Assembly (NCBI RefSeq): GCF_001514285.1
Contig: NZ_KQ949024.1
Coordinates: 1 to 50,189 of the forward strand
Direction of reading: 5' to 3'
Source of the DNA: Streptomyces sp. DSM 15324
GTDB lineage: Bacteria > Actinomycetota > Actinomycetes > Streptomycetales > Streptomycetaceae
DNA length: 50,189 nucleotides
Positions 3,122-25,176 of this stretch are shown here, in pieces; position 1 is the first letter of the stretch, and every line of letters starts with the position of its first letter. The notes beneath the pieces are model-generated. The model did no database searches, was not told the origin of the DNA, and worked only from the letters and a program-made list of their open reading frames with translations. A program made the translations under genes and the position numbers.

Positions 3122-4939
3122 TCAGCGGGCGGTGTGCTGTGCGGCGAGCCGCACCGGCGCGTTAACGGCGCCGTAGCCCCGGTAGCCGCCGTCGCGCTGG
3201 ACGAGTTCGAAGAAGACGCGGCCCACGGTGCGGGTGTAGCAGTGCCGGAAGGTACCGTGCGCGTCCCGGTCGTAGAGGATGCCGAGGTCCCGGTAGGTCT
3301 CCAGCTCTCCGTCGGCGAACTCGAAGCGGGCGGCGAGGTCGTCGTAGTAGTTCGCGGGGATCGGCAGCAGACGTCCGCCGGCCGCGGTGAAGCGGCGGGC
3401 GGCGGCGACCACGTCGTCGGTGGCCAGCGCGATGTGGCGGGCGTGCGCGGTGTCGTCGCCGGGGGCGGCACCGACGGTGAGCGGGAAGCGTACGGTGCCG
3501 TCGCCGCTGGTCACGGCCCGGCTGCGGAGCAGCCCGTAGGGGTCGGCGACGTCGACGCTCTCCTGCGCGTCGAGGCCGAGGACGCCGCGGTGGAAGAGGA
3601 CGGCCTCGTCGAACTGGTGCCAGGGCTGGGTGAGCGCCACATGGTCGACGCGCAGGGCGCCGGGGGGTGCAGGGGTGTGCGGGTCGTCCTCGAAGTCGGC
3701 GCGCCAGTCGGGCAGGCCGGGGCGGTGTGTGGCGCACAGGAAGAGTTCGGTGCCGTCGGGGGCGGCGACGGCGTCGAGCGGGGCGTCGTCGGCGGCGCGG
3801 CGGCGGGGCAGGACGGGGGCGAGGAGGGCCTCGGCGCGGCGGGCGGCGGCGGCCGGGTCCGGGGACTCCAGGCCGATCGCGGCGAGGGTGGTGCCGTCGA
3901 CGGGGGTCCCCCCGGGCGAGCGGAGCCGGGCATGGGGCAGGGCGGTCGGTCCGGTGTTGACGAGGATCCGGGCGTCGCCCTGCTCCCACAGGTCGACGGG
4001 CTTGCGCCGGTGGCGGGCGGTGCGGGCGAAGCCGAGGCGGCCGAGGAGCGCGCCGACGGGTTCCGCGTCGGGGGTGACCAGCTCGGTGAAGGCGATCCCG
4101 GTCGGGGTGGCCGGGGCGGGGAGGGCGGCGACGCCGACCTCCTCCTGGAGCAGCAGCAGGGAGCGGCGGGCGTCGACGGCGGTGGGGCCGGCCGCGGCCT
4201 GGCGGAGGACGTCGTTGAAGACTTCGAGCGAGAGCGGGCCGTCGTATCCCGTATGCAGTACACGGCGTACGAGATCCACCACGTCGAATCCACCCTGCCC
4301 CGGGAAGCAGCGGTGGTGGCGGCTCCACTGGAGCACGTCCATGCCGAGCAGCGGGGCGTCGGCCAGCTGTAGGAAGAAGATCTTCTCGCCGGGGATGTCC
4401 TCGATGCCCTTGGGGTCGGAGCCGCGGGACAGGATGTGGAAGCTGTCCAGACAGGTGCCGAGGGCGGGATGGCCGGCGGTGTCGACGATGTGCCAGGCGT
4501 GGTCGTACGTGCTGACGTGCCGTCCCCAGGCGAGCGCCTCGTAGGCGACCCGGACGCCGAAGTCCTGGGCGAGGTCGGCGAGCCGGGCGAGCTGCTCGGC
4601 GGCGAGGGCGTCGTCGTCCTCGGCGAGCGGGGAGACGCTGGAGCAGACCAGGACGGTGTCCGCGCCGAGCCGGCCCATCAGCTCGAACTTGTGGCGGGCG
4701 CGGCGCAGATTGCGGGCGAACTCGGCCTCGGGGACGGCCTCGACGTCGCGCATCGGCTGGTACAGGTCGATGCTCAGCCCGAGGTCCGCACAGCGGGCGC
4801 GCACGTCCTCGGGGGTGAGGGGGCTCGCGAGCAGGTCGTTCTCGAAGATCTCGACGCCGTCGAAGCCGGCGCGGGCGGCGGCCGCCAGCTTCTCGGTGAG
4901 GGATCCGCTCAGGGAGACGGTGGCGATGGACGTACGCAC
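3122..4939 (-). CDS. quiC: Two-domain 3-dehydroshikimate dehydratase (QuiC type)
   Basis: The predicted role is dehydration of 3-dehydroshikimate to protocatechuate. Residues 1 to about 265 form a sugar-phosphate isomerase/epimerase TIM barrel with likely metal ligands (YEALAWG, CLDSFHILSRG, QLADAPLLG, SLEVFND). The rest is a vicinal-oxygen-chelate domain resembling 4-hydroxyphenylpyruvate dioxygenase (VDHVALTQPWHQFDE, ARHIALATDDV, GRVFFELVQRDGGYRGYG). At 605 residues the length matches bacterial QuiC1-type fusions. The gene lies downstream of an AroE/QuiB-type dehydrogenase on the same strand, separated by a repeat-rich 139-bp gap. This context supports catabolism of quinate and shikimate rather than aromatic amino acid synthesis. 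Confidence 0.88.
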   Translation of the reverse strand: MRTSIATVSLSGSLTEKLAAAARAGFDGVEIFENDLLASPLTPEDVRARCADLGLSIDLYQPMRDVEAVPEAEFARNLRRARHKFELMGRLGADTVLVCSSVSPLAEDDDALAAEQLARLADLAQDFGVRVAYEALAWGRHVSTYDHAWHIVDTAGHPALGTCLDSFHILSRGSDPKGIEDIPGEKIFFLQLADAPLLGMDVLQWSRHHRCFPGQGGFDVVDLVRRVLHTGYDGPLSLEVFNDVLRQAAAGPTAVDARRSLLLLQEEVGVAALPAPATPTGIAFTELVTPDAEPVGALLGRLGFARTARHRRKPVDLWEQGDARILVNTGPTALPHARLRSPGGTPVDGTTLAAIGLESPDPAAAARRAEALLAPVLPRRRAADDAPLDAVAAPDGTELFLCATHRPGLPDWRADFEDDPHTPAPPGALRVDHVALTQPWHQFDEAVLFHRGVLGLDAQESVDVADPYGLLRSRAVTSGDGTVRFPLTVGAAPGDDTAHARHIALATDDVVAAARRFTAAGGRLLPIPANYYDDLAARFEFADGELETYRDLGILYDRDAHGTFRHCYTRTVGRVFFELVQRDGGYRGYGAVNAPVRLAAQHTAR

Positions 4940-5006
4940 CTGGGCACCTCGTGGTTCGTTCTGGTCGTTTCGTGGGGGGCAGCGGCGGGACTGCCGGGAG
5001 ACAGAG

Positions 5007-5060
5007 GGCAGGGAGGCAGGGGGCAGGGCGGCAGGGGCAGGGCGGCAGGGGGCAGGGAGG
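5007..5060. repeat. GGCAGGG tandem degenerate repeat between quiC and aroE/quiB
   Basis: The spacer holds about seven imperfect copies of a GGCAGGG-like heptamer, with GGAGGCA and GGGGCA variants. It lies between two genes of one apparent operon, so it would be transcribed as a purine-rich leader to quiC. It may be slippage-generated. No hairpin or gene is seen in it. Confidence 0.6.
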
Positions 5061-5078
5061 CCGTGGCTACTGCCGTGG

Positions 5079-5969
5079 CTACTTGGGGGCGGGGACGGCG
5101 CCGGCCAGTTCGGCGATGTCGGCGAGCATGCGGGCGCTGTCGGGTTCCCGCCCGGTGAACAGGCGGAACGCGTCCGCCGCCTGGAAGACGGCCATGCCGC
5201 CGCCGTCGAGGGTGGCGCAGCCGAGGGCGCGGGCGGTGTGCAGCAGTTCGGTCTCCAGGGGACGGTAGACGACCTCGGCGACCCACAGCTCCGGCCGCAG
5301 CAGCGCGGCGGGGAAGGGCAGGCCGGGGTGGGCGGCCATGCCGGTGGGGGTGGCGTGGACGACGCCGTCGGCGTGCGCGAGCAGTCCGGGCAGCCGGTCG
5401 AGTCCCGACGCGGCGGCCCGGCCCTCGCCGAAGTGACGGTTCAGGGCGTCGGCGAGCCGCTCGGCCCGCTCGGGCAGCGCGTCCGCCACGGTGACCCGGC
5501 CGGCGCCGAGGGTGAGCGTGGCGTGCGCGACGGCCGCGCCCGCGCCGCCCGCGCCCAGCTGCACGACCCGCTCCAGCGGGACGTCCGGCAGTCCGCGCGC
5601 GAATGACGCGGCGAAGCCGGTGACGTCGGTGTTGTGGCCCACGGCCCGGCCGCCGTCCTCGAAGACGACCGTGTTGACCGCGCCGAGCGCCTCGGCCTGC
5701 GGGGACAGCGCGTCGAGGTGCTCGATGACCAGCTGCTTGCACGGGTGGGTGATGTTCAGCCCGTCGAAGCCAAGGTCACGGGCGGCCCGCACCAGGTCGC
5801 CGACCGCCTGCGGCGCGGCGCCGAGGACGTCGAGGTCGATCAGCCGGTAGAGATAGCGCAGCCCCTGCCGGTCGGCCTCCCGTTCGTGCAGTGCCGGGCT
5901 GAGCGAGGGGCCGATCCCGGAACCGATCAGACCCACGAGATACGAGTCCTTGGTCACGTCCTTGGTCAC
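5079..5969 (-). CDS. aroE: Quinate/shikimate dehydrogenase (AroE family)
   Basis: This NAD(P)-dependent enzyme interconverts 3-dehydroshikimate and shikimate, or 3-dehydroquinate and quinate. The 296-residue protein shows the substrate serines in GPSLSPALHE (about residues 19-28), catalytic Lys in NITHPCKQ and catalytic Asp in GHNTDVTGF. The Rossmann loop is QLGAGGAGAAVAHA. The opening SYLVGLIGSGIGPSLSP and the phrase QGLRYLYRLID resemble corynebacterial catabolic shikimate/quinate dehydrogenases more than housekeeping AroE. It is first in the operon with quiC and divergent from a TetR gene, with an operator between them, so induction by pathway substrates is likely. Confidence 0.88.
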   Translation of the reverse strand: MTKDVTKDSYLVGLIGSGIGPSLSPALHEREADRQGLRYLYRLIDLDVLGAAPQAVGDLVRAARDLGFDGLNITHPCKQLVIEHLDALSPQAEALGAVNTVVFEDGGRAVGHNTDVTGFAASFARGLPDVPLERVVQLGAGGAGAAVAHATLTLGAGRVTVADALPERAERLADALNRHFGEGRAAASGLDRLPGLLAHADGVVHATPTGMAAHPGLPFPAALLRPELWVAEVVYRPLETELLHTARALGCATLDGGGMAVFQAADAFRLFTGREPDSARMLADIAELAGAVPAPK

Positions 5970-12542: not shown

Positions 12543-13769
12543 TCAGCCATCCCCGGTGCGGGTGAACTCCAGTCCCTCCGCGGCCAGTTCATCGAGCCAC
12601 CGCGCCGACCGGGCCGCCGTCTCGGCCGCCCGGCTCAGCCCCGGCGGCAGCGCGCCGGCCAGGATCTGCCGGACGCCGAGCGCGAGCGTGCGCGAGACAC
12701 ACCGCGCCATCGCGCTCTCCGCCTCGTCGCCGACCAGGTCCAGCAGGTAACTCCCCGACCAGGACGCGCCCCCGCGGGCCGAGCCGGCCGACCCCTTCTC
12801 CACCGCAGGCGAGGCCGCGGAGGAGACCTCGGGAGACACCTGTGGGGACACCTCGAGGCGGACCTCCAGGACCACCCGGTCACGGTCGGTGTCCGTCGTC
12901 GGGTAGGCGGCCGCCAACTCCCGTGCCAGCGCGGCGATCCGGGCGTCGTCGCCCGCCTTCAGCTCCTCGAACACCGGCTGCCAGGCGTGCAGCCAGCCGT
13001 CCAGACGCAGGGTGCCGCGCACGAAACCGTCCGCTCTCCAGGCCGGCGGCAGCCCGTACTGCTCGACGAAGGGCACGCTGTCCCGGTTGGGGTACACCTC
13101 GAAGGGTTCCCCGTCGACGACGTGCCGCCGGGTCGCCTCCCAGGGCCGGGCGGCGACGGTCTCGGCCCCGTCCTCGATGTAACGGGCAGGAGAGCGCAGG
13201 GCGTTGAGGACTCCGAGGGGCGCCCAGCTGAAGCGGTAGCGGAAGTCGTCGGGGACCGCGGGGATGCCTCCGCAGTACGAGGTGAGGCGGTACGAGGCCG
13301 CCGTGTCCACGCCGATCGCCTCCCGGGCGCGGGCCACCAGGGCGTGGGCGAAGAGGTGATCGATCCCGGGGTCGAGCCCGGCCTCGGTGAGGACGACCAG
13401 ACCCGACTTCGCGGCCGCCGGGACCTGCTCCAGCACCGCGTCCGAGACATAGCTGGAGCAGGCGAAATGGGCGTGCCGGGCGACGCAGGCGGCCAGCAGC
13501 GGGGCGTGGTCCGGGGCGGGCAGCATCGACACGACGACGTCACCGGGGGCGAGTTCGGCCGTGAGCGCGTCGAGTGTGTAGGCGCGGGGTGCGGCGCGTC
13601 CGGTCAGCCCCAGCCGGTCCAGGGCCTCGGCGGCGCGGTCCTCCGTACGGTGCCAGAGGCGGACGCCGTCGGTGCGTGCGCACAGGTCGGCGAGCCCGCT
13701 GCCCGTCGACAGTCCGGCGCCCACCCAGTGGACGGCACCGCTCGCGGGAACCACCACCGCCTCACTCAT
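12543..13769 (-). CDS. Saccharopine dehydrogenase, LYS9-like (glutamate-forming type)
   Basis: The 408-residue enzyme is of the saccharopine reductase family, which interconverts saccharopine with glutamate and aminoadipate semialdehyde. It shows a Rossmann opening (HWVGAGLSTGSGLADLC), VVVSMLPAPDHAPLLAAC, and the family signature LTEAGLDPGIDHLFAH followed by SYCGGIPAVP. The ATG at 13769 overlaps the upstream gene's stop by 8 bp, indicating coupling. The region at about residues 305-345 is low-complexity (QVSPEVSSAASPAVEK), unlike typical homologues. Pairing with a LYS1-like gene suggests both halves of the saccharopine route. Confidence 0.85.
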   Translation of the reverse strand: MSEAVVVPASGAVHWVGAGLSTGSGLADLCARTDGVRLWHRTEDRAAEALDRLGLTGRAAPRAYTLDALTAELAPGDVVVSMLPAPDHAPLLAACVARHAHFACSSYVSDAVLEQVPAAAKSGLVVLTEAGLDPGIDHLFAHALVARAREAIGVDTAASYRLTSYCGGIPAVPDDFRYRFSWAPLGVLNALRSPARYIEDGAETVAARPWEATRRHVVDGEPFEVYPNRDSVPFVEQYGLPPAWRADGFVRGTLRLDGWLHAWQPVFEELKAGDDARIAALARELAAAYPTTDTDRDRVVLEVRLEVSPQVSPEVSSAASPAVEKGSAGSARGGASWSGSYLLDLVGDEAESAMARCVSRTLALGVRQILAGALPPGLSRAAETAARSARWLDELAAEGLEFTRTGDG

Positions 13770-14832
13770 GGTCGAACTCCCGCCCCTCGATGCCGAGTTC
13801 ACGCCCCGCCCGGCGGAACCGCCGCAGGCAGCGCGCCCATGCCTCCCCAGCGGGCAGTACCAGCAGCTGCGGCAGCAGGGCCGCCGAGAAGTCGGTGCTG
13901 GACTCGCGCGGCAGCAGCGAGGGCAGGTTGTCGATGGCGATCAGGTCCAGCGGGGGCTCCTTGCGCAGGGTGCGCACGGGATCCGTCCACTCCGTGGTGC
14001 GGTCGTAGACGGGCAGGACGTTGAGGGGGGAGCCGACGTCGCAGGTGACGTCGGAGAGGGTGCGCAGCCTGCGGGCCGGGTCGTCCAGGTCCTCCTCGCG
14101 CACGAACGGCGGCACGGGGGTGGTGGCCAGGACGCAGTTGACGAGCAGATCGTGGCCGAGGAGGGCACGACGGTCCAGGTCCCGGGTCTCGGCGAGGTCC
14201 CAGCACGTGGGCTCGACACCGGCCGTGGTGAGCGCGGCGCGGGCGCCGCGGCCGCTGCGGCCCAGGGCACCGACCACGAGGGCGGTGAACTCGCCGTCCT
14301 CGGGGCGCGGCCGCAGGATCTCGTCCAGCGCGTCCCGGTCGGTGGGGAGCAGCGGCGCGGAGAGCCGGCCCCGGTGGTGGAGCACCGCGAGGGCCGCGCC
14401 GAGGTAGCCGGCCCAGAACCCGAACGCGGCCAGCCTGCGGCCCTGTTCGTCGACCAGGTACTCCAGGTCCAGCAGCGCCCCTCCCCCGGCGGCGAACCGG
14501 CGGAGCAGACCGGCGGCACCGGGCTGCTGCTTGTAGGCGTGCCCGAAGAAGACATGGCGGTGGGTCAGCTCGGCCGGCTGGTCGGGGAGTTCCTTCAGGC
14601 CGAGGACGACCGTCTCGGGCGGCGCCGACACCCAGGAGCCCGCGGGGGCGACGCGGGCGCCCACCGCCTCGTACTCCTCGACGGGGAAGATCCGCTGCGG
14701 GGACTCCTCGACGGTCAGCCGCACTCCGGCCTCGACGAGGCGGCGGGCGTCGTCGGGGACGACCGGGGTGCGCCGTTCGGTGGAGCGGTCCTCGTGGCGC
14801 AGCCACAGGTGGGGGGCGGTCGGTGCCGTCAT
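13762..14832 (-). CDS. Saccharopine dehydrogenase, LYS1-like (lysine-forming type)
   Basis: The predicted reaction joins or splits saccharopine, lysine and 2-oxoglutarate with NAD(H). The 356-residue protein resembles yeast LYS1. It keeps the N-terminal RHEDRSTERRTPVVPDDA substrate loop, the lysine in VLGLKELPDQP and the histidine in FFGHAYKQQPG, which match the known catalytic Lys/His pair. It then has LLDLEYLVDEQGRRLAAFG. It overlaps the FAD oxidase stop by 4 bp upstream and the LYS9-like start by 8 bp downstream. Lysine degradation, or supply of aminoadipate/pipecolate precursors, is a reasonable role. Confidence 0.86.
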   Translation of the reverse strand: MTAPTAPHLWLRHEDRSTERRTPVVPDDARRLVEAGVRLTVEESPQRIFPVEEYEAVGARVAPAGSWVSAPPETVVLGLKELPDQPAELTHRHVFFGHAYKQQPGAAGLLRRFAAGGGALLDLEYLVDEQGRRLAAFGFWAGYLGAALAVLHHRGRLSAPLLPTDRDALDEILRPRPEDGEFTALVVGALGRSGRGARAALTTAGVEPTCWDLAETRDLDRRALLGHDLLVNCVLATTPVPPFVREEDLDDPARRLRTLSDVTCDVGSPLNVLPVYDRTTEWTDPVRTLRKEPPLDLIAIDNLPSLLPRESSTDFSAALLPQLLVLPAGEAWARCLRRFRRAGRELGIEGREFDHE

Positions 14833-15974
14833 ACGCAGTTGACCTCCGGACGCGGGGCGTCGGCCGCGAACCGGCCGGCGCTCAGGGGGGTGACGTCCAC
14901 GAAGGGTACGCGGCCCAGGTAGAGGTCGCGGACGACCTCGCCGACGGCCGGTCCCTGGAGGAAGCCATGCCCGGAGAAACCGGTCGCATACAGAAAACGG
15001 GAGATCGAATGCGCCTCGCCGATCAGGGCGTTGTGGTCCGGGGTGATCTCGTACAGGCCCGCCCAGCCTCCCGTGCGGCGCAGCTCCAGGATGTCGGGGG
15101 CGCGGTGCTCCAGCGCGGCGGCGAGACGGGGGATCCAGCGGTCGTGGGTGTCGGTGGCGAAGCCGGGCCGCTCGTCGGGGTCGGACATCCCGACGAGCAG
15201 ACCGGGGCCCTCGGAGTGGAAGTAGAGGGTGGTGCTGAAGTCGATCGTCATGGGGAGGTCCGGCGCGAGTCCGGGCACCGCCTCGGTGACCGCGATCTGG
15301 CGGCGCAGCGGCTGCACCGGCAGGTCCACGCCCACCATCGCGCCGACGGACCGGGACCAGGCGCCGGCCGCGCAGATCACCGTGTCGGTGGTGATCGGGC
15401 CGAGGGTGGTGGTGACGCCGGTGATGGTGTCGCCGCGGGTCTCGATGCCGGTCACCGCGGTCCGGCGCAGGATGCGCGCGCCGTACCGGCGGGCGGCGTC
15501 GGCGTACCCCTGGACGACGGCCTCCGGCGTGCAGTGCCCGTCGTCGGGCGAGAACGCGGCGGCGCGTAAGCCGTCGGTGGTGATCAGCGGGGAGAGCCGG
15601 CGGGCCTCCGCCGGGTCGATCATGCGGCTGGGCACCCCGAGCGCGTTCTGCAGCCGCACGCCCGCCTCGAACGAGGCGACCTCCTCGGGGGTGGAGAGCA
15701 GGAAGAGGTAGCCGACCCGGTGCAGTCCGATGTCGTGCCCGAACTCCTCGCCGAACCGCCCGAACGCCTCCAGGCTGCGCGCCCCGAGCTGGATGTTCAG
15801 CTCGTCGGAGAACTGGGCGCGCACCCCTCCGGCGGCCTTCGAGGTCGACCCGGCGGCGAGGTCGTCCCGTTCCACCAGCAGGACGTCCCGTACGCCCGCG
15901 GCGGCCAGGTGGTAGGCGATGCTGGTCCCGATCACTCCGCCGCCGATGACGACGACCGAGGCATGCGTGTTCAC
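14829..15974 (-). CDS. FAD-dependent amine/amino acid oxidase (sarcosine oxidase beta-like)
   Basis: The 381-residue DAO-family flavoprotein has an N-terminal dinucleotide motif VVVIGGGVIGTSIAYHLAAAG and the GSTSKAAGGVRAQFSDE loop. A C-terminal FAD-binding stretch reads GWAGLYEITPDHNALIGE, then FLYATGFSGHGFLQGPAVGE. Family members oxidise sarcosine, glycine, pipecolate or other secondary amines. The GTG start has AAGGAG 8 bp upstream. As first gene of the saccharopine operon it may oxidise an amine-bearing intermediate such as saccharopine or pipecolate. The exact substrate is inferred only from context. Confidence 0.84.
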   Translation of the reverse strand: MNTHASVVVIGGGVIGTSIAYHLAAAGVRDVLLVERDDLAAGSTSKAAGGVRAQFSDELNIQLGARSLEAFGRFGEEFGHDIGLHRVGYLFLLSTPEEVASFEAGVRLQNALGVPSRMIDPAEARRLSPLITTDGLRAAAFSPDDGHCTPEAVVQGYADAARRYGARILRRTAVTGIETRGDTITGVTTTLGPITTDTVICAAGAWSRSVGAMVGVDLPVQPLRRQIAVTEAVPGLAPDLPMTIDFSTTLYFHSEGPGLLVGMSDPDERPGFATDTHDRWIPRLAAALEHRAPDILELRRTGGWAGLYEITPDHNALIGEAHSISRFLYATGFSGHGFLQGPAVGEVVRDLYLGRVPFVDVTPLSAGRFAADAPRPEVNCV

Positions 15975-16093: not shown

Positions 16094-16753
16094 TCAGGAC
16101 CAGTGCGCGACGGCGTCCAGGTGCGGCAGCCGGTGGTCCATGCGCTCCCGCTTGGTGCGCAGGTAGGTGATGTTGTTCTCGCACGGTTCGATGAGCAGCG
16201 GCACCTCCTCGGCGACCTGGATGCCGTTGTCGACGAGCGCCTCGCGCTTGCGCGGGTTGTTCGACATCAGCCGCACGGACCGTACGCCGAGGTCGCGCAG
16301 GATGTCGGCGGCCACCTTGTAGTCGCGGGCGTCCACCGGGAAGCCGAGCGCCACGTTCGCCTCGACGGTGTCCAGCCCCTCCGCCTGGAGGGCCATCGCG
16401 CGCAGCTTGCCCAGCAGGCCGATGCCGCGTCCCTCGTGGCCGCGCAGATAGACGACGATGCCGCTGCCGGCGGCGACGACGGCCCGCAGCGCCGACTCCA
16501 GCTGGTCGCCGCACTCGCAGTGCTGGGAGCCGAACGCGTCGCCGGTCAGGCATTCCGAGTGCAGCCGGGTCAGCACGTCCTCGCTGCCGATCTCGCCGTA
16601 CACCAGGGCGACTTGTTCGTCACCGCGGTCGTGGTCGAGGTAGCCCACCGCCTGGAATTTCCCGTACACCGTGGGCAAGGGGGCATTCACCACGCGTTCC
16701 ACACCGGTGCGCTGCGCGGTCTGCTTGCCGAGTACGCCAATGTTCTCTGTCAT
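16094..16753 (-). CDS. ribA: GTP cyclohydrolase II paralogue with Met120 switch (predicted FAPy-forming)
   Basis: This zinc enzyme opens the imidazole ring of GTP. The 219-residue protein has the zinc cysteines in ECLTGDAFGSQHCECG (Cys68, Cys79, Cys81) and RGHEGRGIGLLGKLRAMALQ. Canonical enzymes have tyrosine in IRAYALQ; here the aligned residue is Met120. In S. coelicolor SCO6655 the same Met120 was reported to stop the reaction at the formylated product FAPy. Loss of deformylation is therefore predicted. No other riboflavin genes are nearby. It is divergent, only 38 bp away, from a creatininase-family gene and belongs to the 16-24 kb cluster. Confidence 0.93.
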   Translation of the reverse strand: MTENIGVLGKQTAQRTGVERVVNAPLPTVYGKFQAVGYLDHDRGDEQVALVYGEIGSEDVLTRLHSECLTGDAFGSQHCECGDQLESALRAVVAAGSGIVVYLRGHEGRGIGLLGKLRAMALQAEGLDTVEANVALGFPVDARDYKVAADILRDLGVRSVRLMSNNPRKREALVDNGIQVAEEVPLLIEPCENNITYLRTKRERMDHRLPHLDAVAHWS

Positions 16754-16791
16754 GATCTGATTCCTAAGCGGAGACGAAAGGCCGGGAAAAG

Positions 16792-17622
16792 ATGAGTGGT
16801 TCGGAGATAAGGACGGCGGCGACGGCGGGGGCGGGGGCGACGTACGGCCTGCTGCCCGCGGACACCACCGAGGACGTCCGCTCCCGGGGCGCGGGCGTCA
16901 CCACGCAGGTGGCCGTCCTGCCGGTCGGCAGCTTCGAACAGCACGGTCCGTACCTGCCGCTCGCCACCGACACCCTGGTCGCGTGCGCCATCGCCCGGGA
17001 GATCGCCGGGGCGTACCCGGTGCACCTCCTTCCGCCGGTGACCATCGCCTGCTCGCACGAGCACGCGGGCTGGCCGGGGACCGTCAGCATCTCCTCCGTG
17101 ACCCTTCACGCGGTGGTACGGGACATCGCGGCGTCGTTGCGCCGCTCGGGCGTCGAGGCCCTGGTGCTGGTCAACGGACACGGCGGGAACTACGTCCTGG
17201 GCAACGCTGTCCAGGAGTCCTCCGCCCGCGGTGAGCGGATGGCGCTCTTCCCGGCCCCGGAGGACTGGGAGGCGGCGCGGGAACGGTCCGGGGTGGTGAC
17301 CTCGCTCCTCACCGACATGCACGCCGGGGAGATCGAGACCTCGATCCTGCTGCACGCCCACCCGGAACTCGTCCGGCCCGGTTTCGAGTCCGCCGATTTC
17401 ACCGCGGACGACCGCCGCCATCTGCTCACGCTGGGAATGTCCGCCTATACCGATTCGGGCGTCATCGGCCGTCCTTCCCTGGGGTCCGCGGAAAAGGGGA
17501 AGGAACTCCTGGCGAGCCTGGCGGATTCCTTCGGCGCGTATTTCTCGCTGCTGACTTCGGAGGCCTCCGGAAACACCGGCTCCGGGAACACGGGGGTCAG
17601 CGGGGGGTCCGGCTCGCTGTAG
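16792..17622 (+). CDS. Creatininase/ArfB-family metal-dependent amidohydrolase
   Basis: The 276-residue protein has the creatininase family metal-binding set: SFEQHGPYLPLATDT (about residues 44-58), HEHAGWPGT, LVNGHGGNY and DMHAGEIETS. The archaeal relative ArfB hydrolyses the formamide of FAPy. The divergent neighbour is a cyclohydrolase predicted to make FAPy, so FAPy deformylase is the leading hypothesis. Creatininase or mycofactocin MftE-like roles are alternatives, but no mycofactocin genes are present. A purine-rich GAAAGGCCGGGAAAAG tract precedes the ATG. The last 178 bp overlap the convergent membrane-protein gene. Confidence 0.85.
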   Translation: MSGSEIRTAATAGAGATYGLLPADTTEDVRSRGAGVTTQVAVLPVGSFEQHGPYLPLATDTLVACAIAREIAGAYPVHLLPPVTIACSHEHAGWPGTVSISSVTLHAVVRDIAASLRRSGVEALVLVNGHGGNYVLGNAVQESSARGERMALFPAPEDWEAARERSGVVTSLLTDMHAGEIETSILLHAHPELVRPGFESADFTADDRRHLLTLGMSAYTDSGVIGRPSLGSAEKGKELLASLADSFGAYFSLLTSEASGNTGSGNTGVSGGSGSL

Positions 17623-18860
17623 GCCGCCCGGGGCGCTGGGCCGGAAACAGTCTCACCGGCCTCAGCAGGCTCACGGGCACCGGCCTCAGCAGGCTCAGCG
17701 GCCTCACGGGACTCAGCGGCCTCACCAGGCTCACGGGACTCAGCGGCCTCGTCGGCCCGTACGGCTGTGTACCAGCGCACCACGAGGACGACGGCCCCCG
17801 GCAGCGCGGCCACGAAGCTGAGCACGCCGTACACCACCGCCACCGACAGGCCGGTGTCCGCGCCGAGGCCGGCCGCGCCGAACGCCCAGGCGGTGACGCC
17901 CTCGCGGGGTCCCCAGCCGCCGACGTTCAGCGGCACGGCCATCGCCAGCAGGGCGAGCATCGCGATCGGCAGCAGGGCGAGCACGGAGGCGCCGGAGCCG
18001 GCCACCCGGGCGGCGACGACGAACATCGCGACGTACCCGGCGAGCACGACCAGCGACGACACGGCCACCCCGGGCCCGTTGCGCCGCGACAGCAGCCCCT
18101 CGCGCGCCTCCGCCAGCGCCCTGCTCAGGCGTCCGGCGGGGCGCGGCCGGGAGGAGTTCATGCGCAGCGCGAGCACCACGGCGAGTGCCCCCGCCCCGGC
18201 CAGCAGGACCAGCGGGGCGAGGCCGCGCAGCCGGCCCATGACCGGGGACGGCAGCACCAGCAGGACCGTTACGCCCGCGCCGGCCAGCGCGAGCTGTCCC
18301 GCCGTGCGCTCCAGCACGACCGCCCGTACACCGCGCCCGACGTCACCGGCGCTCTGCCCGTGCCGCACGGCGCGGTGCACGTCGCCGAGGATGCCGCCGG
18401 GCAGGGCCGCGTTCAGGAACAGCGCCCGGTAGTAGTCCGCGACCGCCGCGCCGAACGGCAGCCGGATGCGCAGCCCGCGGGCCACCAGCGCCCACCGCCA
18501 GGCGCTGAAGACGGTGGTGACGGCGCCGATGCCGAGCGCGACCAGCACGGTCGGCAGGTCGATCCGGCGCAGCCCGTCCAGGAACACGCCCGTCCCCATC
18601 CGCCACAGCAGCACCGTGAGGATGGCGACGCCGGCGACGCTCCCGAAGTGGGTGCGCAGGGCGCGCGAGGCGAACACCCTGCGCCACGCCGACGGCGTGC
18701 GGTGCGGCTCGGTCACGATGACCCCGATGCGGGTCTCGGACACGGCGGGGCCGGTGCGCACCGCCGACGGGGCACGCGGCGGCCGTACGGCCGGGGTGCC
18801 CTCGCTCCGCACCGCGGGCGCGGCCGTGCCGGCCCGCGCCCCCACCGTCTCGGCGCTCAT
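17445..18860 (-). CDS. Lysylphosphatidylglycerol synthase TM-domain family membrane protein (flippase-like)
   Basis: The 471-residue integral membrane protein is of the UPF0104/AglD-like family. About eight hydrophobic helices span residues 75-370, with family motifs FSAWRWALVARGL, YYRALFLNAALPGGILGDVHRA and PLNVGGWGPREGVTAWAFG. The cytosolic ends are low-complexity: a 60-residue Thr/Ala/Pro N-terminus and an Ala/Glu/Pro C-terminal tail of about 100 residues. The tail reads antisense to the 3' end of the creatininase gene. The ATG overlaps the methyltransferase stop (TGATG). Relatives move or anchor lipid-linked molecules, so the pathway product may reach the membrane. Confidence 0.82.
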   Translation of the reverse strand: MSAETVGARAGTAAPAVRSEGTPAVRPPRAPSAVRTGPAVSETRIGVIVTEPHRTPSAWRRVFASRALRTHFGSVAGVAILTVLLWRMGTGVFLDGLRRIDLPTVLVALGIGAVTTVFSAWRWALVARGLRIRLPFGAAVADYYRALFLNAALPGGILGDVHRAVRHGQSAGDVGRGVRAVVLERTAGQLALAGAGVTVLLVLPSPVMGRLRGLAPLVLLAGAGALAVVLALRMNSSRPRPAGRLSRALAEAREGLLSRRNGPGVAVSSLVVLAGYVAMFVVAARVAGSGASVLALLPIAMLALLAMAVPLNVGGWGPREGVTAWAFGAAGLGADTGLSVAVVYGVLSFVAALPGAVVLVVRWYTAVRADEAAESREPGEAAESREAAEPAEAGAREPAEAGETVSGPAPRAAYSEPDPPLTPVFPEPVFPEASEVSSEKYAPKESARLARSSFPFSADPREGRPMTPESV

Positions 18861-19990
18861 CAGACGCGCCCCGTCGGCCGGGCCAGGGCGAGCAGGTCGC
18901 TGTGGTGGACGGTGACCCTGAGCTCGCCCGCCTGGCAGGCCGTGAGGCGCTTGGCGAGGTAGCCCTCGGCACGTTCGGCGAGGTCGGGGCGCTGCTCCAC
19001 GGCCGCGCCGACCCAGCCGCGCAGCCACTGGGCGGTGAGCGCGGCCTGCTCGGGGCCGAGCCGCCAGGGGCTCGGGTGGACCTTGACGGTGGCGCCGTGG
19101 TCGGCGAACGCCTCGCAGGCGACACCCACCGCGTCGGGGCCGAGGAGGCCGCCGCGCCGCTGGTGGTCGTTGAAGGCGGCGGCGAGCTCCTCGTCCAGCG
19201 GGTCCGGCGCGGAGAACTCGACCCGGCCGGCGACCGACAGCGTGAGCAGCGCCGGGCAGCCGGCGCCCGCGCAGGCCGCGGCGAGCGTCTCGACCTCCTC
19301 GCGGGTCAGGACGTCGAGGAGGGCGGAGGCGGTGACGAGGGAGGCGCCGGTCAGGGCGTCCGGGGTGAGCCGGGCGACGTCGCCGCGCCGGGTCTCGACG
19401 GTGACCCGGCTGCCGTCGGCGGCCGCGCGCGGCGAGGCGACGGCCGCGAAGTGCAGCAGGTAGGGGTCGCGGTCGTGCAGGATCCAGTGCTGGCCGCCGT
19501 CCAGGCGGGGCGCGAGCCAGCGGCCCATCGAGCCGGTGCCGCAGCCCAGGTCGTGGACGGCGAGACCGCCGCTGCGTCCGTTCGGCAGGTTCGCGAGCCG
19601 GATCCGCAGCGGGTCCAGCAGGTCCACCGCCCGCGCCGCGGCGTCCGCGGGCTCACGCAGCTGGAGCCACTCGGGCGCGTACCGGGGCTGGTCCTCGGGT
19701 CCGGCCTCCCGCAGCCGTACGGTGGGCCGCTCGCCGGGACGGGTGACGGGGCCCGCGCCCGCTATCACCGCGTCGGGGTCGGCAGCGCCGTCCGGCACAT
19801 CCAGGGCCAGGCGGTCCGTCGCATCCAGGGCCACGCGGTCCGTCGCATCCGGGGTCGCGCTGTCCGCCGCTTCCGGCGCCACGGTGCCGGTCGCGATGCC
19901 GGTCACGTCCTGGGCCATGGTGCCGGTCACGTCCTGGGCCACGGTGCCGGTCACGTCCTGGGCGACGGTGCCGGTCGCGATGTCCGTCAT
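18860..19990 (-). CDS. Class I SAM-dependent methyltransferase
   Basis: The 376-residue protein has a Rossmann SAM-binding core at about residues 143-260. Motif I is VHDLGCGTGSMGRWLAPRL, followed by WILHDRDPYLL, a GDV motif and LVTASALLDVLTREEVETL. The first 90 residues are a repeat-rich, probably disordered extension containing three near-identical TVAQDVTG octapeptides. I prefer the ATG at 19990, with GGAGG 8 bp upstream. An alternative ATG at 20077 overlaps the glycosyltransferase stop (ATGA), has its own GGAGG and would add 29 residues. The cluster context implies methylation of a GTP-derived or glycosylated intermediate. Confidence 0.85.
   Translation of the reverse strand: MTDIATGTVAQDVTGTVAQDVTGTMAQDVTGIATGTVAPEAADSATPDATDRVALDATDRLALDVPDGAADPDAVIAGAGPVTRPGERPTVRLREAGPEDQPRYAPEWLQLREPADAAARAVDLLDPLRIRLANLPNGRSGGLAVHDLGCGTGSMGRWLAPRLDGGQHWILHDRDPYLLHFAAVASPRAAADGSRVTVETRRGDVARLTPDALTGASLVTASALLDVLTREEVETLAAACAGAGCPALLTLSVAGRVEFSAPDPLDEELAAAFNDHQRRGGLLGPDAVGVACEAFADHGATVKVHPSPWRLGPEQAALTAQWLRGWVGAAVEQRPDLAERAEGYLAKRLTACQAGELRVTVHHSDLLALARPTGRV
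19904..19979. repeat. 24-bp in-frame tandem repeat in the methyltransferase N-terminus
   Basis: Three near-identical 24-bp units, read on the plus strand as GGTGCCGGTCACGTCCTGGG plus four bases, encode TVAQDVTG three times. A second degenerate repeat at about 19799-19850 encodes DATDR.ALD twice. In-frame expansion suggests a tolerant, disordered segment. Confidence 0.7.
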
Positions 19991-20073
19991 GGTGGAGGCC
20001 TCCTTCGGGCCCGGCTGGGTGGGGATGGCCCCCACGCGCCGCGCCATGTCCGCCGGGCTCGCCGTCGTCTTCC

Positions 20074-21788
<1,715 letters not shown>

Positions 21789-21793
21789 TCAGG

Positions 21794-22786
21794 TCAGGCG
21801 CTCATGCTGCTGTCCGACGGGTACCTGACACGGTGGCAGAGCGCGGGGATCTCGCCCGATGCCAGCGCCGGCATCACCTCCGGAAGCTCCTCGAACGCGC
21901 TTTCCCCCGTGACGAGCGCGTCGAGCGCCGGATCGGCCAGCAGGTCGAGGGCGAGCGCGAGCCGGTCGGCGTAGCTGCGGTCGGCGCGGGCCGGGGAGAC
22001 GGTGCCGACCTGACTGCTGCGGATCACCAGCCGGCGCGAGTGGAAGGCCTCGCCGAGCGGCAGCGCGATCCTGCGGTCGCCGTACCAGCTCAGTTCGAGG
22101 ACGGTGCCCTCCGCGCGGAGCAGTTCCAGTGACCGGGTCAGGCCCTGCTCGGTGGCGCTGGCGTGCACGACCAGGTCGCAGCCGCCGAGCGCGTCCCCGG
22201 GTAGCGCGAAGCCGACGCCGAGCGCCTCCGCGGTCTTCGCGCGCGCCGGGTCGGCGTCCACCAGCTGGACGCGCACGCCGGGGAAGCGGGCCAGCAGCGC
22301 GGCGACCGAGCAGCCGACCATGCCGCCGCCGACCACCGCGATCCGGTCCCCGACCAGGGGCTTCGCGTCCCACAGCGCGTTGACGGCGGTCTCCACGGTG
22401 CCGGCGAGCACGGCCCGTCCGGCGGGCACGACGTCCGGTACGACCGTCACGGCCGTCTCGGGGACGACGTACCGCGTCTGATGCGGATAGAGACAGAAGA
22501 CCGTCCGCCCGACGAGCCGTGCCGGTCCCTCCTCCACCACCCCGACGTTGAGGTAGCCGTACTTCACGGGCGCCGGGAAGTCGCCCTCCTGGAACGGTGC
22601 CCGCATGACCGTGTGCTGGCTCTCGGGCACCTGTCCGCGGAAGACGAGGGTCTCCGTGCCACGGCTGATCCCGGAGTACAGCGAACGGACGACGACCTCG
22701 CCCTCAGCGGGCTCCGGCAGGGCCACGTCCCGTATCCCGCCGCGGCCCGGGGCGTCGATCCAGAACGCGCGTCCGCTGCGGTCCAT
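21794..22786 (-). CDS. Medium-chain (MDR) alcohol dehydrogenase-like oxidoreductase, non-catalytic-zinc type
   Basis: The 330-residue MDR superfamily protein has an N-terminal GroES-like domain (ALPEPAEGEVVVRSLYSGISRGTE) and the Rossmann motif AVVGGGMVGCSVAALLARFPG. The usual catalytic-zinc GxCGTD is replaced by GISRGTE, as in the BchC-like branch. AGGAGG lies 6 bp before the ATG at 22786. An ATG two codons upstream sits directly against that site, so 22786 is the start. It is divergent from the CDP-alcohol phosphotransferase. It probably oxidises or reduces a sugar or side-chain alcohol of the cluster product. Confidence 0.85.
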   Translation of the reverse strand: MDRSGRAFWIDAPGRGGIRDVALPEPAEGEVVVRSLYSGISRGTETLVFRGQVPESQHTVMRAPFQEGDFPAPVKYGYLNVGVVEEGPARLVGRTVFCLYPHQTRYVVPETAVTVVPDVVPAGRAVLAGTVETAVNALWDAKPLVGDRIAVVGGGMVGCSVAALLARFPGVRVQLVDADPARAKTAEALGVGFALPGDALGGCDLVVHASATEQGLTRSLELLRAEGTVLELSWYGDRRIALPLGEAFHSRRLVIRSSQVGTVSPARADRSYADRLALALDLLADPALDALVTGESAFEELPEVMPALASGEIPALCHRVRYPSDSSMSA

Positions 22787-22906
22787 CGTCATCCTCCTGA
22801 ACGATCTGCTGAACGATCTGCAACCGGTGCACGTACCGAGGTGTGCACAGGTCGCGCACAGTACGCGGCACTGATCATCTCTGTCACCTGGCCGGAGGAA
22901 TGTGCG
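22787..22906. promoter_or_regulatory. Divergent control region with a perfect 12-bp tandem repeat
   Basis: CTGAACGATCTG occurs twice head to tail at 22797-22808 and 22809-22820, next to the ribosome-binding site of the oxidoreductase. Farther right, GTGCAC occurs twice around 22828-22856. The region must hold promoters for both divergent genes. No regulator is encoded nearby. Confidence 0.5.
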
Positions 22907-23665
22907 GTGGCCCTGAACAACACTTACGACGCAAGGCTGGTCCAGCAGGAGACCGCTGTGGGGGCGGGCGTCCAGATCCTGCTGCTGGCCCTGCTCGGTT
23001 CGGCGATCGGCATGGGGCCGGCGGGCTGGGTCACCGGCCTCGTCTTCGCCGTCGCCACCTGGGCCGTCCTCTCCCGGGCACTGCACCGCTCACGACTGCG
23101 CTCCTTCGGCCCCGCCAACCGGGTCACCCTCGGCCGCGCCACCCTCGTCGGCGGGGTGACCGCCCTGGTCGCCGACTCCTTCGAGTCCACCCCGCCGGTG
23201 ACCCTGCTGGTCGGCCTCACCGCCGTCGCCCTGATCCTCGACGGCGTCGACGGCAAGGTCGCCCGCCGCACCGGCACCTCCACCGCGCTGGGCGCGCGCT
23301 TCGACATGGAGGTCGACGCGTTCCTCATCCTGGTCCTGAGCGTGTACGTCTCCATGGCGCTCGGCCCGTGGGTGCTGCTGGTCGGCGCGATGCGGTACGT
23401 CTTCGTCGCCGCCGCCCGCGTCGCCCCCTGGCTCAACGCCCCGCTCCCGCCGAGCATGGCCCGCAAGACCGTCGCCGCCCTCCAGGGCATCTGCCTGCTG
23501 GTCGCGGGCGCGGACCTCCTCCCCCACAGCGGCAACGTCGCCGTCATGCTGCTGGCCCTCGGCACCCTGCTCTGGTCCTTCGGCCGCGACGTGCTGTGGC
23601 TGTACCGCACCTCCCGGGTCCGCGCGGCCCGTCCGGCGGAGCAGCGGGTGCTGGAACTCGCCTAG
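22907..23665 (+). CDS. CDP-alcohol phosphatidyltransferase family membrane protein
   Basis: The 252-residue membrane protein has about six hydrophobic segments. The complete CDP-alcohol signature DG(2)AR(8)G(3)D(3)D reads DGKVARRTGTSTALGARFDM followed by EVD at about residues 117-139. Such enzymes swap CMP for an alcohol, forming a phosphodiester. The acceptor may be inositol, glycerol or a lipid. The start is GTG at 22907 with GGAGGA at 22894-22899. It completes the cluster and suggests that the product, or a carrier, is linked through a phosphodiester. Confidence 0.88.
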   Translation: MALNNTYDARLVQQETAVGAGVQILLLALLGSAIGMGPAGWVTGLVFAVATWAVLSRALHRSRLRSFGPANRVTLGRATLVGGVTALVADSFESTPPVTLLVGLTAVALILDGVDGKVARRTGTSTALGARFDMEVDAFLILVLSVYVSMALGPWVLLVGAMRYVFVAAARVAPWLNAPLPPSMARKTVAALQGICLLVAGADLLPHSGNVAVMLLALGTLLWSFGRDVLWLYRTSRVRAARPAEQRVLELA

Positions 23666-23754: not shown

Positions 23755-23862
23755 CACTGGCGGGTGTGTTCGGACTGGCGGGTGTGTTCGGCTGGGCAAG
23801 TCCTGTTCGGCTGGGCAGGTGTGTTCGGCTGGGCGCATGTGTTCGGCTGGGCGCTCGGGCAG
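23755..23862. repeat. Degenerate GTGTTCGGCTGGGC tandem repeat
   Basis: About six imperfect 15-18-bp units containing TGTTCGG[AC]TGG follow the terminator, outside any gene. No conserved coding frame is seen. It adjoins the 9-bp repeat at the 3' end of the MFS gene. Confidence 0.6.
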
Positions 23863-23877
23863 ACGCCTCGCCTGCGT

Positions 23878-25176
23878 CTACGGCCGTGGCGTGTCCGGTT
23901 GTACGGCAGTGTCGACGGCTTCGGCTGCGTCGGCTGCGTCGGCTGCGTCGGCTGCGTCGGCTGCGTCGGCGCGACGGTGTGGGCGGCCCCGGCCCGGCAG
24001 CAGGGCGATCGCGGCGACCGGTACCGCGGCCAGCAGCAGCCAGGGCACGGCCGGCGGGAGCCCGGTGTCGAGGAGTGTGCCGGTGGCCGCGCTGCCGAGC
24101 AGCACGATGAGCCCGGAGAGCGACGACAACGCCCCGGTGTACAGGCCGAGTCGGCCCCGCTCCGCGAGGTCGGGGACCCAGGCGCGGACGGCGGGGGCGA
24201 CCAGCATCTGACCGAGGGTCAGCAGCACGGCGAACCCCACGGCGGGCAGCAGCCCCGTCGTCCCGGTCCGCCCGGCGGGCAGGGCCGCGGCGACCACCGT
24301 GAACCCCGCGGCGATCAGCCCCAGCCCGGCCGCCGCCGAACGGCGGGTGCCGATGCGTTCCCCCGCCCAGCGGGTGACGGGCAGTTGGGCGGTCACCACC
24401 AGCAGCGACGACAGCGCGAACAGCCAGGCCAGCGGCGCCTGCGAACCCGCCGCGCGCTCCACCTCGGCGGGCAGGGCGAGGTAGAACTGGTTGTAGGCGA
24501 GGAGGTAGGCGCCGTAGGCGCAGCACAGGGCGAGGAAGCTGCGGTTGCGCAGCAACGGGCCGATGCCGCTCCGGACTTCGACGCGCTCCCGGCCGGGCAG
24601 GTGCTGCGGCAGCAGCACGGCGTGCGCGGCGAGCACCAGGACGAAGACGCCGGCGCCGGCGAGGCACACGGCCCGGAAGTCGACCGACAGCAGCAGCGCG
24701 CCCAGCAGCGGACCGACGAACGCCCCGGCCTGTCCGGCGACCGTGAACAGGGCCAGCACCCGGGTGCGGGACCCGCCGCCCGCCTCCTCGTGCGCGACGG
24801 CCTGCCGGGCCACCTCGGACTCGACCGCCGGGGAGAAGAGCGCGGCGGCGAACCCGACGAGCAGCACGGCCCCGGTCACCGCCCAGGCCCGCTCGGCGTA
24901 ACCAAGCCAGACGAACCCGGCGATCCGCAGCGCACAGCCGGCCAGGACGACGGGCCGCACCCCGTAACGGTCGGCCAGGGCACCGCCGACCACGAACAGC
25001 CCCTGCTGGCTGAAGGTCCGCAGCCCCAGCACGAAACCCACGAGCCATCCCGCCATCCCGACGGCCCCGCCCAGATGCTCGGACAGGAACGGCAGCACCG
25101 CGAAGAAGCCGATGTTGAAGGCGAGTTGGGTGAGAACGAGCAGCCGCAGGAGCGGCGGGAGCCGGAGCGGGTTCAT
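23878..25176 (-). CDS. MFS transporter of the metal-controlled operon
   Basis: The 432-residue protein has about 12 hydrophobic segments, with GGALADRYGVRPVVLAG as loop-2 motif and FTVAGQAGAFVGPLLGALL in the first half. It resembles major facilitator exporters of the MdtH/bacilysin-type branch. The C-terminus ends in a repetitive (A-D-A)n tail encoded by five GGCTGCGTC units at 23923-23967. The ATG overlaps the permease stop (ATGA). It is last of a four-gene unit (GNAT, binding lipoprotein, permease, MFS), so it may export a ligand that the ABC proteins recapture. Confidence 0.84.
   Translation of the reverse strand: MNPLRLPPLLRLLVLTQLAFNIGFFAVLPFLSEHLGGAVGMAGWLVGFVLGLRTFSQQGLFVVGGALADRYGVRPVVLAGCALRIAGFVWLGYAERAWAVTGAVLLVGFAAALFSPAVESEVARQAVAHEEAGGGSRTRVLALFTVAGQAGAFVGPLLGALLLSVDFRAVCLAGAGVFVLVLAAHAVLLPQHLPGRERVEVRSGIGPLLRNRSFLALCCAYGAYLLAYNQFYLALPAEVERAAGSQAPLAWLFALSSLLVVTAQLPVTRWAGERIGTRRSAAAGLGLIAAGFTVVAAALPAGRTGTTGLLPAVGFAVLLTLGQMLVAPAVRAWVPDLAERGRLGLYTGALSSLSGLIVLLGSAATGTLLDTGLPPAVPWLLLAAVPVAAIALLPGRGRPHRRADAADAADAADAADAAEAVDTAVQPDTPRP

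What the first reader, a model, noticed from the sequence alone, without database searches (positions are those of the whole stretch)
16094..23665. Uncharacterised pathway built on a FAPy-type GTP cyclohydrolase II
Eight genes cluster: a GCH II paralogue with Met120, a creatininase/ArfB-family hydrolase, a zinc-less PTPS-fold protein, a methyltransferase, a GT4 glycosyltransferase, an MDR oxidoreductase, an LPG-synthase-TM membrane protein and a CDP-alcohol phosphotransferase. The run oxidoreductase-PTPS-GT4-methyltransferase-membrane protein is on one strand with overlaps at three junctions. GTP opened to FAPy, deformylated, then modified, glycosylated and phosphodiester-linked would give a novel pyrimidine or pterin glycoconjugate. 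The order of steps is inference. The S. coelicolor homologues have partial biochemistry but no product that I know of.
Basis: partly seen in the sequence, partly recalled or inferred. Interest (0 to 1): 0.93.

Follow-up and report, generated by a model that had tools for sequence, protein, structure and literature searches.

The report
Split GTP route to unknown glycoconjugate
Streptomyces and other actinobacteria share a conserved gene cluster that likely diverts GTP, by way of an early vitamin B2 intermediate, into an unidentified compound predicted to carry a sugar, and in most Streptomyces the reductase it would need is predicted to be encoded elsewhere in the genome.

Summary
The eight genes are real and form one unit. 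All eight occur together in 75 of 80 Streptomyces loci; four misses are cut by contig ends, one is a lone PTPS gene. The run oxidoreductase, PTPS-fold protein, GT4 keeps order and strand in 37 of 37 fetched loci of other genera of the class, in 15 of 15 loci of a distant family (likely Rubrobacteraceae) and in L142.

New here: (1) GCH II position 120 is never Tyr in 96 loci with the creatininase and always Tyr in 15 cluster loci without it, but the first group is one clade, so effectively one event. (2) Other lineages carry a RibD_C reductase in the cluster. Of 20 cluster-bearing Streptomyces genomes, 4 have one in the cluster and 16 have one elsewhere; 6 of 20 without the cluster have it. (3) The PTPS catalytic DHxxLN motif is absent in 141 of 141 cluster copies.

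Likely route: GTP, FAPy, APy, ribityl compound, remodelling, glycosylation, methylation. Everything after FAPy is inferred and the product is unknown. FAPy formation by SCO6655 and the SCO6650 structure were known before (recalled papers).

The parts
16094..16753 (-). GTP cyclohydrolase II paralogue with Met120 (SCO6655 counterpart)
   Evidence: PF00925 218.7 bits; Met120 opposite Tyr105 of 2bz0
16754..16791 (.). 38-bp space between the divergent GCH II and creatininase genes
   Evidence: coordinates; sequence printed
16792..17622 (+). creatininase-family hydrolase, proposed FAPy deformylase (SCO6654 counterpart by gene order)
   Evidence: PF02633 213 bits; motifs EQHG/TDT, HGGN and DMHAGExETS in 94 of 95 cluster copies
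17445..18860 (-). LPG_synthase_TM / flippase-like membrane protein (SCO6653 counterpart by gene order)
   Evidence: PF03706 111.9 bits; several hydrophobic segments
18860..19990 (-). class I methyltransferase, start chosen by me (SCO6652 counterpart by gene order)
   Evidence: PF13649 27.2 bits; AlphaFold model with methyltransferase fold
20074..21282 (-). GT4 glycosyltransferase (SCO6651 counterpart by gene order)
   Evidence: PF00534 101.6 bits
21279..21677 (-). PTPS-fold (T-fold) protein without zinc ligand and catalytic residues (SCO6650 counterpart)
   Evidence: PF01242 80.1 bits; 3d7j 267.6 bits; motif analysis
21794..22792 (-). zinc-less MDR oxidoreductase, start chosen by me (SCO6649 counterpart by gene order)
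   Evidence: below Pfam cut-offs; fold model; alignment
22907..23665 (+). CDP-alcohol phosphotransferase, GTG start chosen by me (SCO6648 counterpart by gene order)
   Evidence: PF01066 53.3 bits; motif DGx2ARx8Gx3Dx3D present, as in 116 of 117 cluster copies

Best explanation
This is a conserved actinobacterial gene cluster that would divert GTP into an unidentified glycosylated and methylated pyrimidine- or pterin-type compound, likely through a GTP cyclohydrolase II step split between a FAPy-forming GCH II and a creatininase-family deformylase, followed by a RibD_C reductase that in this genome is predicted to be the one at a second locus. Proposed steps: (1) the Met120 GCH II opens GTP to FAPy (recalled biochemistry of SCO6655; the residue is shown here). 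(2) The creatininase homologue removes the formyl group and gives APy (inferred from pairing); lineages without it keep a Tyr-type GCH II that should make APy directly. (3) A RibD_C reductase turns the ribosyl into a ribityl group (inferred from gene context). (4) The oxidoreductase and the PTPS-fold protein remodel the product (inferred). Preferred version: oxidation at C2' of the ribityl chain gives the ketone that GTP cyclohydrolase I reaches by Amadori rearrangement, and the T-fold protein closes the second ring to a dihydroneopterin-type pterin. (5) The GT4 enzyme adds a sugar and the methyltransferase a methyl group (inferred). (6) In the class of Streptomyces the CDP-alcohol phosphotransferase and the membrane protein probably anchor or move the product (inferred, weakest step).
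For: Synteny: oxidoreductase-PTPS-GT4 in order on one strand in 79 of 80 Streptomyces loci, 37 of 37 other-genus class loci, 8 of 8 further same-genus loci, 15 of 15 f18 loci and L142. Pairing: position 120 of GCH II is Met 85, Leu 6, His 4, Gln 1, Tyr 0 in 96 loci with the creatininase, and Tyr in 15 of 15 cluster loci without it. Precedent: BrbF, annotated as a creatininase, deformylates the same compound in Sinorhizobium (PMC9478397: abstract, sections 6 and 10 read). RibD_C lies in 15 of 15 f18 clusters, in 15 of 19 non-f84 loci among L147-L181, in L114, L116 and, fused to GCH II, in L142. The own unlinked RibD_C joins the in-cluster copies of nine families in a 100/100 clade and lies beside a GCH II 67% identical to the one in the L114 cluster. 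Of 20 cluster-bearing Streptomyces genomes, 4 have RibD_C in the cluster and 16 the unlinked type, against 6 of 20 without the cluster. Three separate RibD_C lineages serve the same core. The nearest folds of the oxidoreductase are polyol dehydrogenases.
Against: The creatininase/non-Tyr pairing is one clade of the GCH II tree (96/87), so it is close to a single event. Three f84 clusters (G632, G520, G459) have neither a GCH II nor a creatininase in the fetched stretch, and no strong creatininase in the genome. The three f2 clusters (L115, L178, L180) show no GCH II or RibD_C nearby. 15 of the 20 cluster-bearing Streptomyces genomes also have a Tyr-type GCH II, so it is not clear why a split route is kept. 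The oxidoreductase lacks the Cys and His zinc ligands of polyol dehydrogenases (Ser43, Tyr80, ligand positions recalled), which weakens the C2' oxidation step. The creatininase scores best with the peptidase model MftE. The RibD_C tree carries a long-branch warning. The f18 methyltransferase was not matched by the window methyltransferase query, so it may be a different one.
Confidence: 0.45

Rival explanations
1. The ring is never closed to a pterin: the cluster makes a ribityl- or ribosyl-pyrimidine glycoside or a 7-azapteridine-like compound, and the T-fold protein only binds or isomerises the pyrimidine.
For: GCH II and RibD-type enzymes start such pathways (toxoflavin, recalled; one search gave listings only). 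The PTPS catalytic motif is gone in 141 of 141 cluster copies, and the zinc-less oxidoreductase may be a reductase.
Against: The T-fold protein keeps the Glu and Thr/Ser-Glu elements that hold a pterin ring in PTPS (alignment; roles recalled). No toxoflavin-type late gene was noted among the eight.
Confidence: 0.27
2. FAPy itself, still formylated, is carried through the pathway, and the creatininase homologue acts later or on a different amide, for example as an MftE-like peptidase.
For: MftE is the best NCBIfam model for it (136 bits, cut-off 172). In four Streptomyces genomes it lies beside RibD_C on the same strand, which fits a late step as well as an early one.
Against: It appears only with a non-Tyr GCH II (96 of 96) and never beside a Tyr-type cluster GCH II (0 of 15), which points to the formyl group.
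Confidence: 0.18
3. The GCH II and creatininase are a back-up for riboflavin synthesis, and the other genes are unrelated neighbours.
For: BrbF has that role in Sinorhizobium (PMC9478397).
Against: All 36 cluster-bearing genomes tested have another GCH II outside the cluster. The other genes keep their order across families, also where the creatininase is absent. SCO6655 and SCO2687 expression is listed as anticorrelated with predicted flux (PMC2853524 passage).
Confidence: 0.07

Closest known systems
SCO6655 (FAPy-forming GCH II) and SCO6650 (PTPS homologue, PDB 3d7j) of Streptomyces coelicolor; Spoonamore et al. 2006 and 2008, both recalled and not held; the 2006 paper is listed as reference 28 of PMC3509567
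   Same: The window holds counterparts of both: Met120 and a near-identical PTPS-fold protein
   Different: As far as I recall those papers treat single proteins; the pathway, the creatininase/Tyr pairing and the RibD_C partner are new here
BrbF, creatininase-family FAPy formamidase of Sinorhizobium meliloti (PMC9478397)
   Same: Annotated as creatininase; removes the formyl group of the same intermediate
   Different: Serves riboflavin there, with its FAPy-forming partner not yet found; here a FAPy-type GCH II is the neighbour. I did not compare the two sequences
RibD reductase of riboflavin synthesis (PF01872 domain)
   Same: The in-cluster and unlinked reductases carry PF01872
   Different: No deaminase domain in the in-cluster copies scanned; linked to the oxidoreductase-PTPS-GT4 core
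PTPS / COG0720 subfamilies I, II and III (PMC5041015)
   Same: Same fold family (PF01242)
   Different: Motifs CxxxHGH, CxxxxxHGH and ExxHGH are not met; DHxxLN replaced by (Y/H)RNLD in nearly all copies
Tetrahydrobiopterin glucosyltransferase pathway
   Same: T-fold protein plus GT4; such enzymes (5ze7, 9v0l) are among the GT4 profile's 93 matches
   Different: Those matches are not near the top; entry here is by GCH II, not GCH I (pathway recalled)
Toxoflavin pathway (recalled)
   Same: A GCH II and a RibD-type enzyme given over to a side product
   Different: The T-fold protein, GT4, CDP-alcohol phosphotransferase and membrane protein here are not, as recalled, part of it

Membership tests
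GTP cyclohydrolase II | PF00925 / RibA model above cut-off | tested here: met
   218.7 bits against 23.3; TIGR00505 232 against 205.85
GTP cyclohydrolase II, APy-forming type | Tyr at the position of E. coli Tyr105 | tested here: not met
   Met120 in the window
GTP cyclohydrolase II, FAPy-forming type | product is FAPy | not testable with these tools
   known only for SCO6655 (recalled)
ArfB (archaeal FAPy deformylase) | NCBIfam NF033501 above cut-off 180 | tested here: not met
   35.4 bits; it may still work like ArfB
MftE | NCBIfam TIGR03964 above cut-off 172 | tested here: not met
   136.1 bits
BrbF | sequence clade of SMc02977 | not tested
   sequence of SMc02977 not fetched
Creatininase superfamily hydrolase | PF02633 and conserved metal-site motifs | tested here: met
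   213 bits; motifs in 94 of 95 cluster copies
PTPS-I, -II, -III | CxxxHGH, CxxxxxHGH or ExxHGH | tested here: not met
   window reads FGPAQRLHGA (motifs from PMC5041015)
PTPS-V | its signature motif | not tested
   motif not given in the passages seen
Zinc-dependent polyol dehydrogenase (MDR) | catalytic zinc ligands Cys and His | tested here: not met
   Ser43 and Tyr80 invariant at those places in 19 sequences (ligand positions recalled)
Zinc-dependent polyol dehydrogenase (MDR) | fold | tested here: met
RibD_C reductase (unlinked partner, own genome C10) | common clade with in-cluster PF01872 proteins | tested here: met
   100/100 clade of 23 rows; the own copy itself was not scanned with Pfam

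The most novel reading that the evidence does not exclude
The cluster is GTP cyclohydrolase I taken apart: GCH II opens the ring, a creatininase deformylates, RibD_C and a zinc-less MDR replace the Amadori rearrangement by reduction and re-oxidation, and a zinc-less T-fold protein closes the second ring. It makes a pterin from the riboflavin side, which is then glycosylated, methylated and, in Streptomyces, tied to the membrane late in development.
Probability: 0.2. Interest if true: 0.93.

Novelty: new variant of a known kind. Interest (0 to 1): 0.74.

Why it matters
It joins two orphan biochemical results (SCO6655, SCO6650) in one testable pathway, points to a partner reductase at a separate locus, and proposes from one residue when a GCH II needs a separate deformylase. 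A GTP-derived glycoconjugate conserved from Streptomyces to a distant actinobacterial family would be a new compound class with a likely developmental role.

Tried and rejected
Riboflavin back-up: unlikely, see rivals. Ordinary queuosine or folate PTPS: not for the cluster copies. Eleven PTPS loci of other genomes of the phylum (L132-L141, L143) have the DHxxLN motif and no cluster, and served as controls. L135 has GCH II, RibD_C and a canonical PTPS but no oxidoreductase or GT4; one search counts it among 16 Tyr rows and I left it out of the cluster count (15); it is still among the 16 RibD_C rows of the tree. Methyltransferase model: only generic class I methyltransferases, no substrate. GT4 profile: generic matches, best Tll1590 and MshA-type, no donor or acceptor. 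Residue 120 of the two other own GCH IIs was not read out.

Limits of sampling. One search kept the best 80 of 566 confirmed relatives, so the named loci are the closest ones. Of 70 matching genomes, long stretches were fetched for 33, among them 15 of the 19 matching f18 genomes. Of the 37 non-Streptomyces genomes, 36 were fetched (G357 left out, match at a contig end); 8 of the 20 same-genus ones were fetched long. The 20 Streptomyces genomes without the cluster are those printed, not the whole genus. The tree holds 28 of the creatininase-linked GCH IIs (27 loci and the window), that seven of the 16 f84 unlinked reductases. The creatininase search covered 14 of the 15 Tyr-type genomes (G028 not); best score there 91 bits, against 272-365 bits in the four listed genomes that have it. 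Fisher values ignore phylogeny: unlinked RibD_C 16/20 against 6/20, p 0.0036 (the fair comparison); 20/20 against 6/20 counts in-cluster copies on one side only, p 3e-6; Tyr-type GCH II above 240 bits 15/20 against 1/20, p 1e-5 (G626 without the cluster has a weaker one, 203 bits). Family labels f18, f84, f2 are handles; f18 is called likely Rubrobacteraceae because named hits of its PTPS are Rubrobacter sp. (77%) and a Rubrobacteraceae bacterium (75%). SCO numbers other than 6650 and 6655 are inferred from gene order.

Literature: searches gave no paper on this pathway among the titles and abstract starts listed; most subscription journals are not held, and one search matched 13,344 papers by loose terms, of which 20 were listed. 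Seen: PMC9478397 abstract, sections 6 and 10; PMC3610822 one passage and section 16; PMC2853524, PMC5041015 and PMC3509567 passages only; the toxoflavin papers as listings only.
Full report
What is there. Seven of the eight families pass Pfam cut-offs at the stated coordinates, and the eighth, the oxidoreductase, is below the cut-offs but has a clear MDR fold. The PTPS-fold protein is nearly identical to SCO6650 of S. coelicolor, solved as 3d7j. GCH II residue Met120 lies opposite residue 105, Tyr, of 2bz0. A paper lists SCO6655 as GCH II (PMC2853524 passage); four genes lie between PTPS and GCH II in the window, and four numbers lie between 6650 and 6655, so the other SCO numbers are inferred from order.

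Conservation. A scan with the PTPS protein kept the best 80 of 566 loci, all Streptomyces. All eight genes are in 75 of them; L034, L039, L042 and L050 end too early, and L058 has a lone PTPS gene. Across the phylum 70 of 296 genomes matched the PTPS protein, but 11 of the fetched loci are canonical PTPS proteins without the cluster. Across the class 57 of 394 matched at 1e-15. In long contexts the run oxidoreductase-PTPS-GT4 keeps order and strand in 35 of 35 loci of other genera (L147-L181), in L114 and L115, in 8 of 8 further same-genus loci, in 15 of 15 f18 loci and in L142; L116 lacks the oxidoreductase at a contig end. GT4 and methyltransferase share one open frame in six loci (L056, L119, L121, L125, L131, L181), of which L056 could be a chance or a sequence error. 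L142 has a GCH II-RibD_C fusion.

The split cyclohydrolase. I aligned each GCH II found near a cluster and read position 120. With a creatininase in the fetched stretch: Met 85, Leu 5, His 4, Gln 1, Tyr 0 (95). Without: Tyr 16, of which L135 is not a cluster and is dropped, and Leu 1 (L158). The L158 genome does have the creatininase (272 bits), about 3 kb outside the first stretch and present in the second. Final count: 0 Tyr of 96 with, 15 of 15 without. In the 14 Tyr-type genomes searched whole, the best creatininase match is 91 bits, against 272-365 bits in the genomes that have the gene. Three f84 clusters have neither gene nearby. A tree of 46 GCH IIs puts the creatininase-linked ones in one clade (96/87), so residue change and hydrolase go together in what is effectively one event, after which the residue drifted among Met, Leu, His and Gln. 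FAPy formation by SCO6655 and the role of Met120 are recalled (Spoonamore 2006, not held). A creatininase-family FAPy formamidase, BrbF, is in print (PMC9478397).

The reductase. A RibD_C protein lies in 15 of 15 f18 clusters, in 15 of 19 non-f84 loci among L147-L181, and in L114, L116 and L142. None of the 16 f84 clusters has one. The own genome has a third GCH II beside a RibD_C on another contig, 67% and 56% identical to the in-cluster pair of L114. In a tree of 45 RibD_Cs this copy, seven f84 unlinked copies and the in-cluster copies of nine families form one 100/100 clade; the f18 copies and the Streptomyces in-cluster copies (with f5 and f105) lie outside it (with a long-branch warning). 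Of 20 cluster-bearing Streptomyces genomes, 16 have the unlinked type, in 15 of them within about 2 kb of a Tyr-type GCH II (coordinates); the other four (G443, G452, G522, G579) have a RibD_C next to the creatininase in the cluster. Of 20 listed Streptomyces genomes without the cluster 6 have the unlinked type, and all 16 f84 genomes have it.

Mechanism. Shown: genes, order, conservation, residue, co-occurrence. Inferred: deformylation, reduction, remodelling, glycosylation, methylation and any membrane step. The version I prefer for the remodelling, reduction by RibD_C and re-oxidation at C2' followed by ring closure on the T-fold protein, would reach the intermediate that GTP cyclohydrolase I makes by Amadori rearrangement (recalled chemistry). 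I give it 0.2.

When it may act. SCO6652, the methyltransferase by numbering, is up by log2 0.8, 4.3 and 4.1 in the second mycelium at 24, 48 and 72 h against 16 h (PMC3610822, section 16). SCO6655 and SCO2687 appear in one list of genes anticorrelated with predicted flux, -0.61 and -0.52 (PMC2853524 passage).

Novelty. The locus and two of its proteins were known (recalled). The pathway, the creatininase/Tyr pairing and the RibD_C partner were not found in the held library. I file it as a new variant of a known kind, a GTP-derived side pathway, because the product is unknown.

Noticed in passing
L199:9874-12353 (own genome, contig C10): A third GCH II and a RibD_C gene lie divergently side by side, SCO2687/SCO2688-like by recall; linked to the cluster by co-occurrence.
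   Followed up: yes
window 19786-19994: The methyltransferase gene begins with 24-bp tandem repeats that code for about 95 low-confidence residues (pLDDT below 50), a stretch the aligned relatives mostly lack.
   Followed up: partly
L058:10001-10396: Streptomyces sp. NBC_01549 has a lone PTPS gene, 92% identical, with none of the other seven genes within 10 kb.
   Followed up: partly
L142:803-2131: GCH II and RibD_C are one 442-residue protein, divergent from the oxidoreductase-PTPS pair.
   Followed up: partly
window 23759-23977: GC-rich tandem repeats with units of 9, 18 and 27 bp just downstream of the CDP-alcohol phosphotransferase gene.
   Followed up: no
window 12543-15974: Run of saccharopine-dehydrogenase-like, alanine-dehydrogenase/PNT-like and DAO-type genes next to GCH II; AlaDH is near the cluster in 43 and DAO in 39 of 80 Streptomyces loci.
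   Followed up: no
window 3122-5969: Xylose-isomerase-like TIM barrel fused to glyoxalase/HPPD-like domains, next to a shikimate-dehydrogenase-like gene.
   Followed up: no
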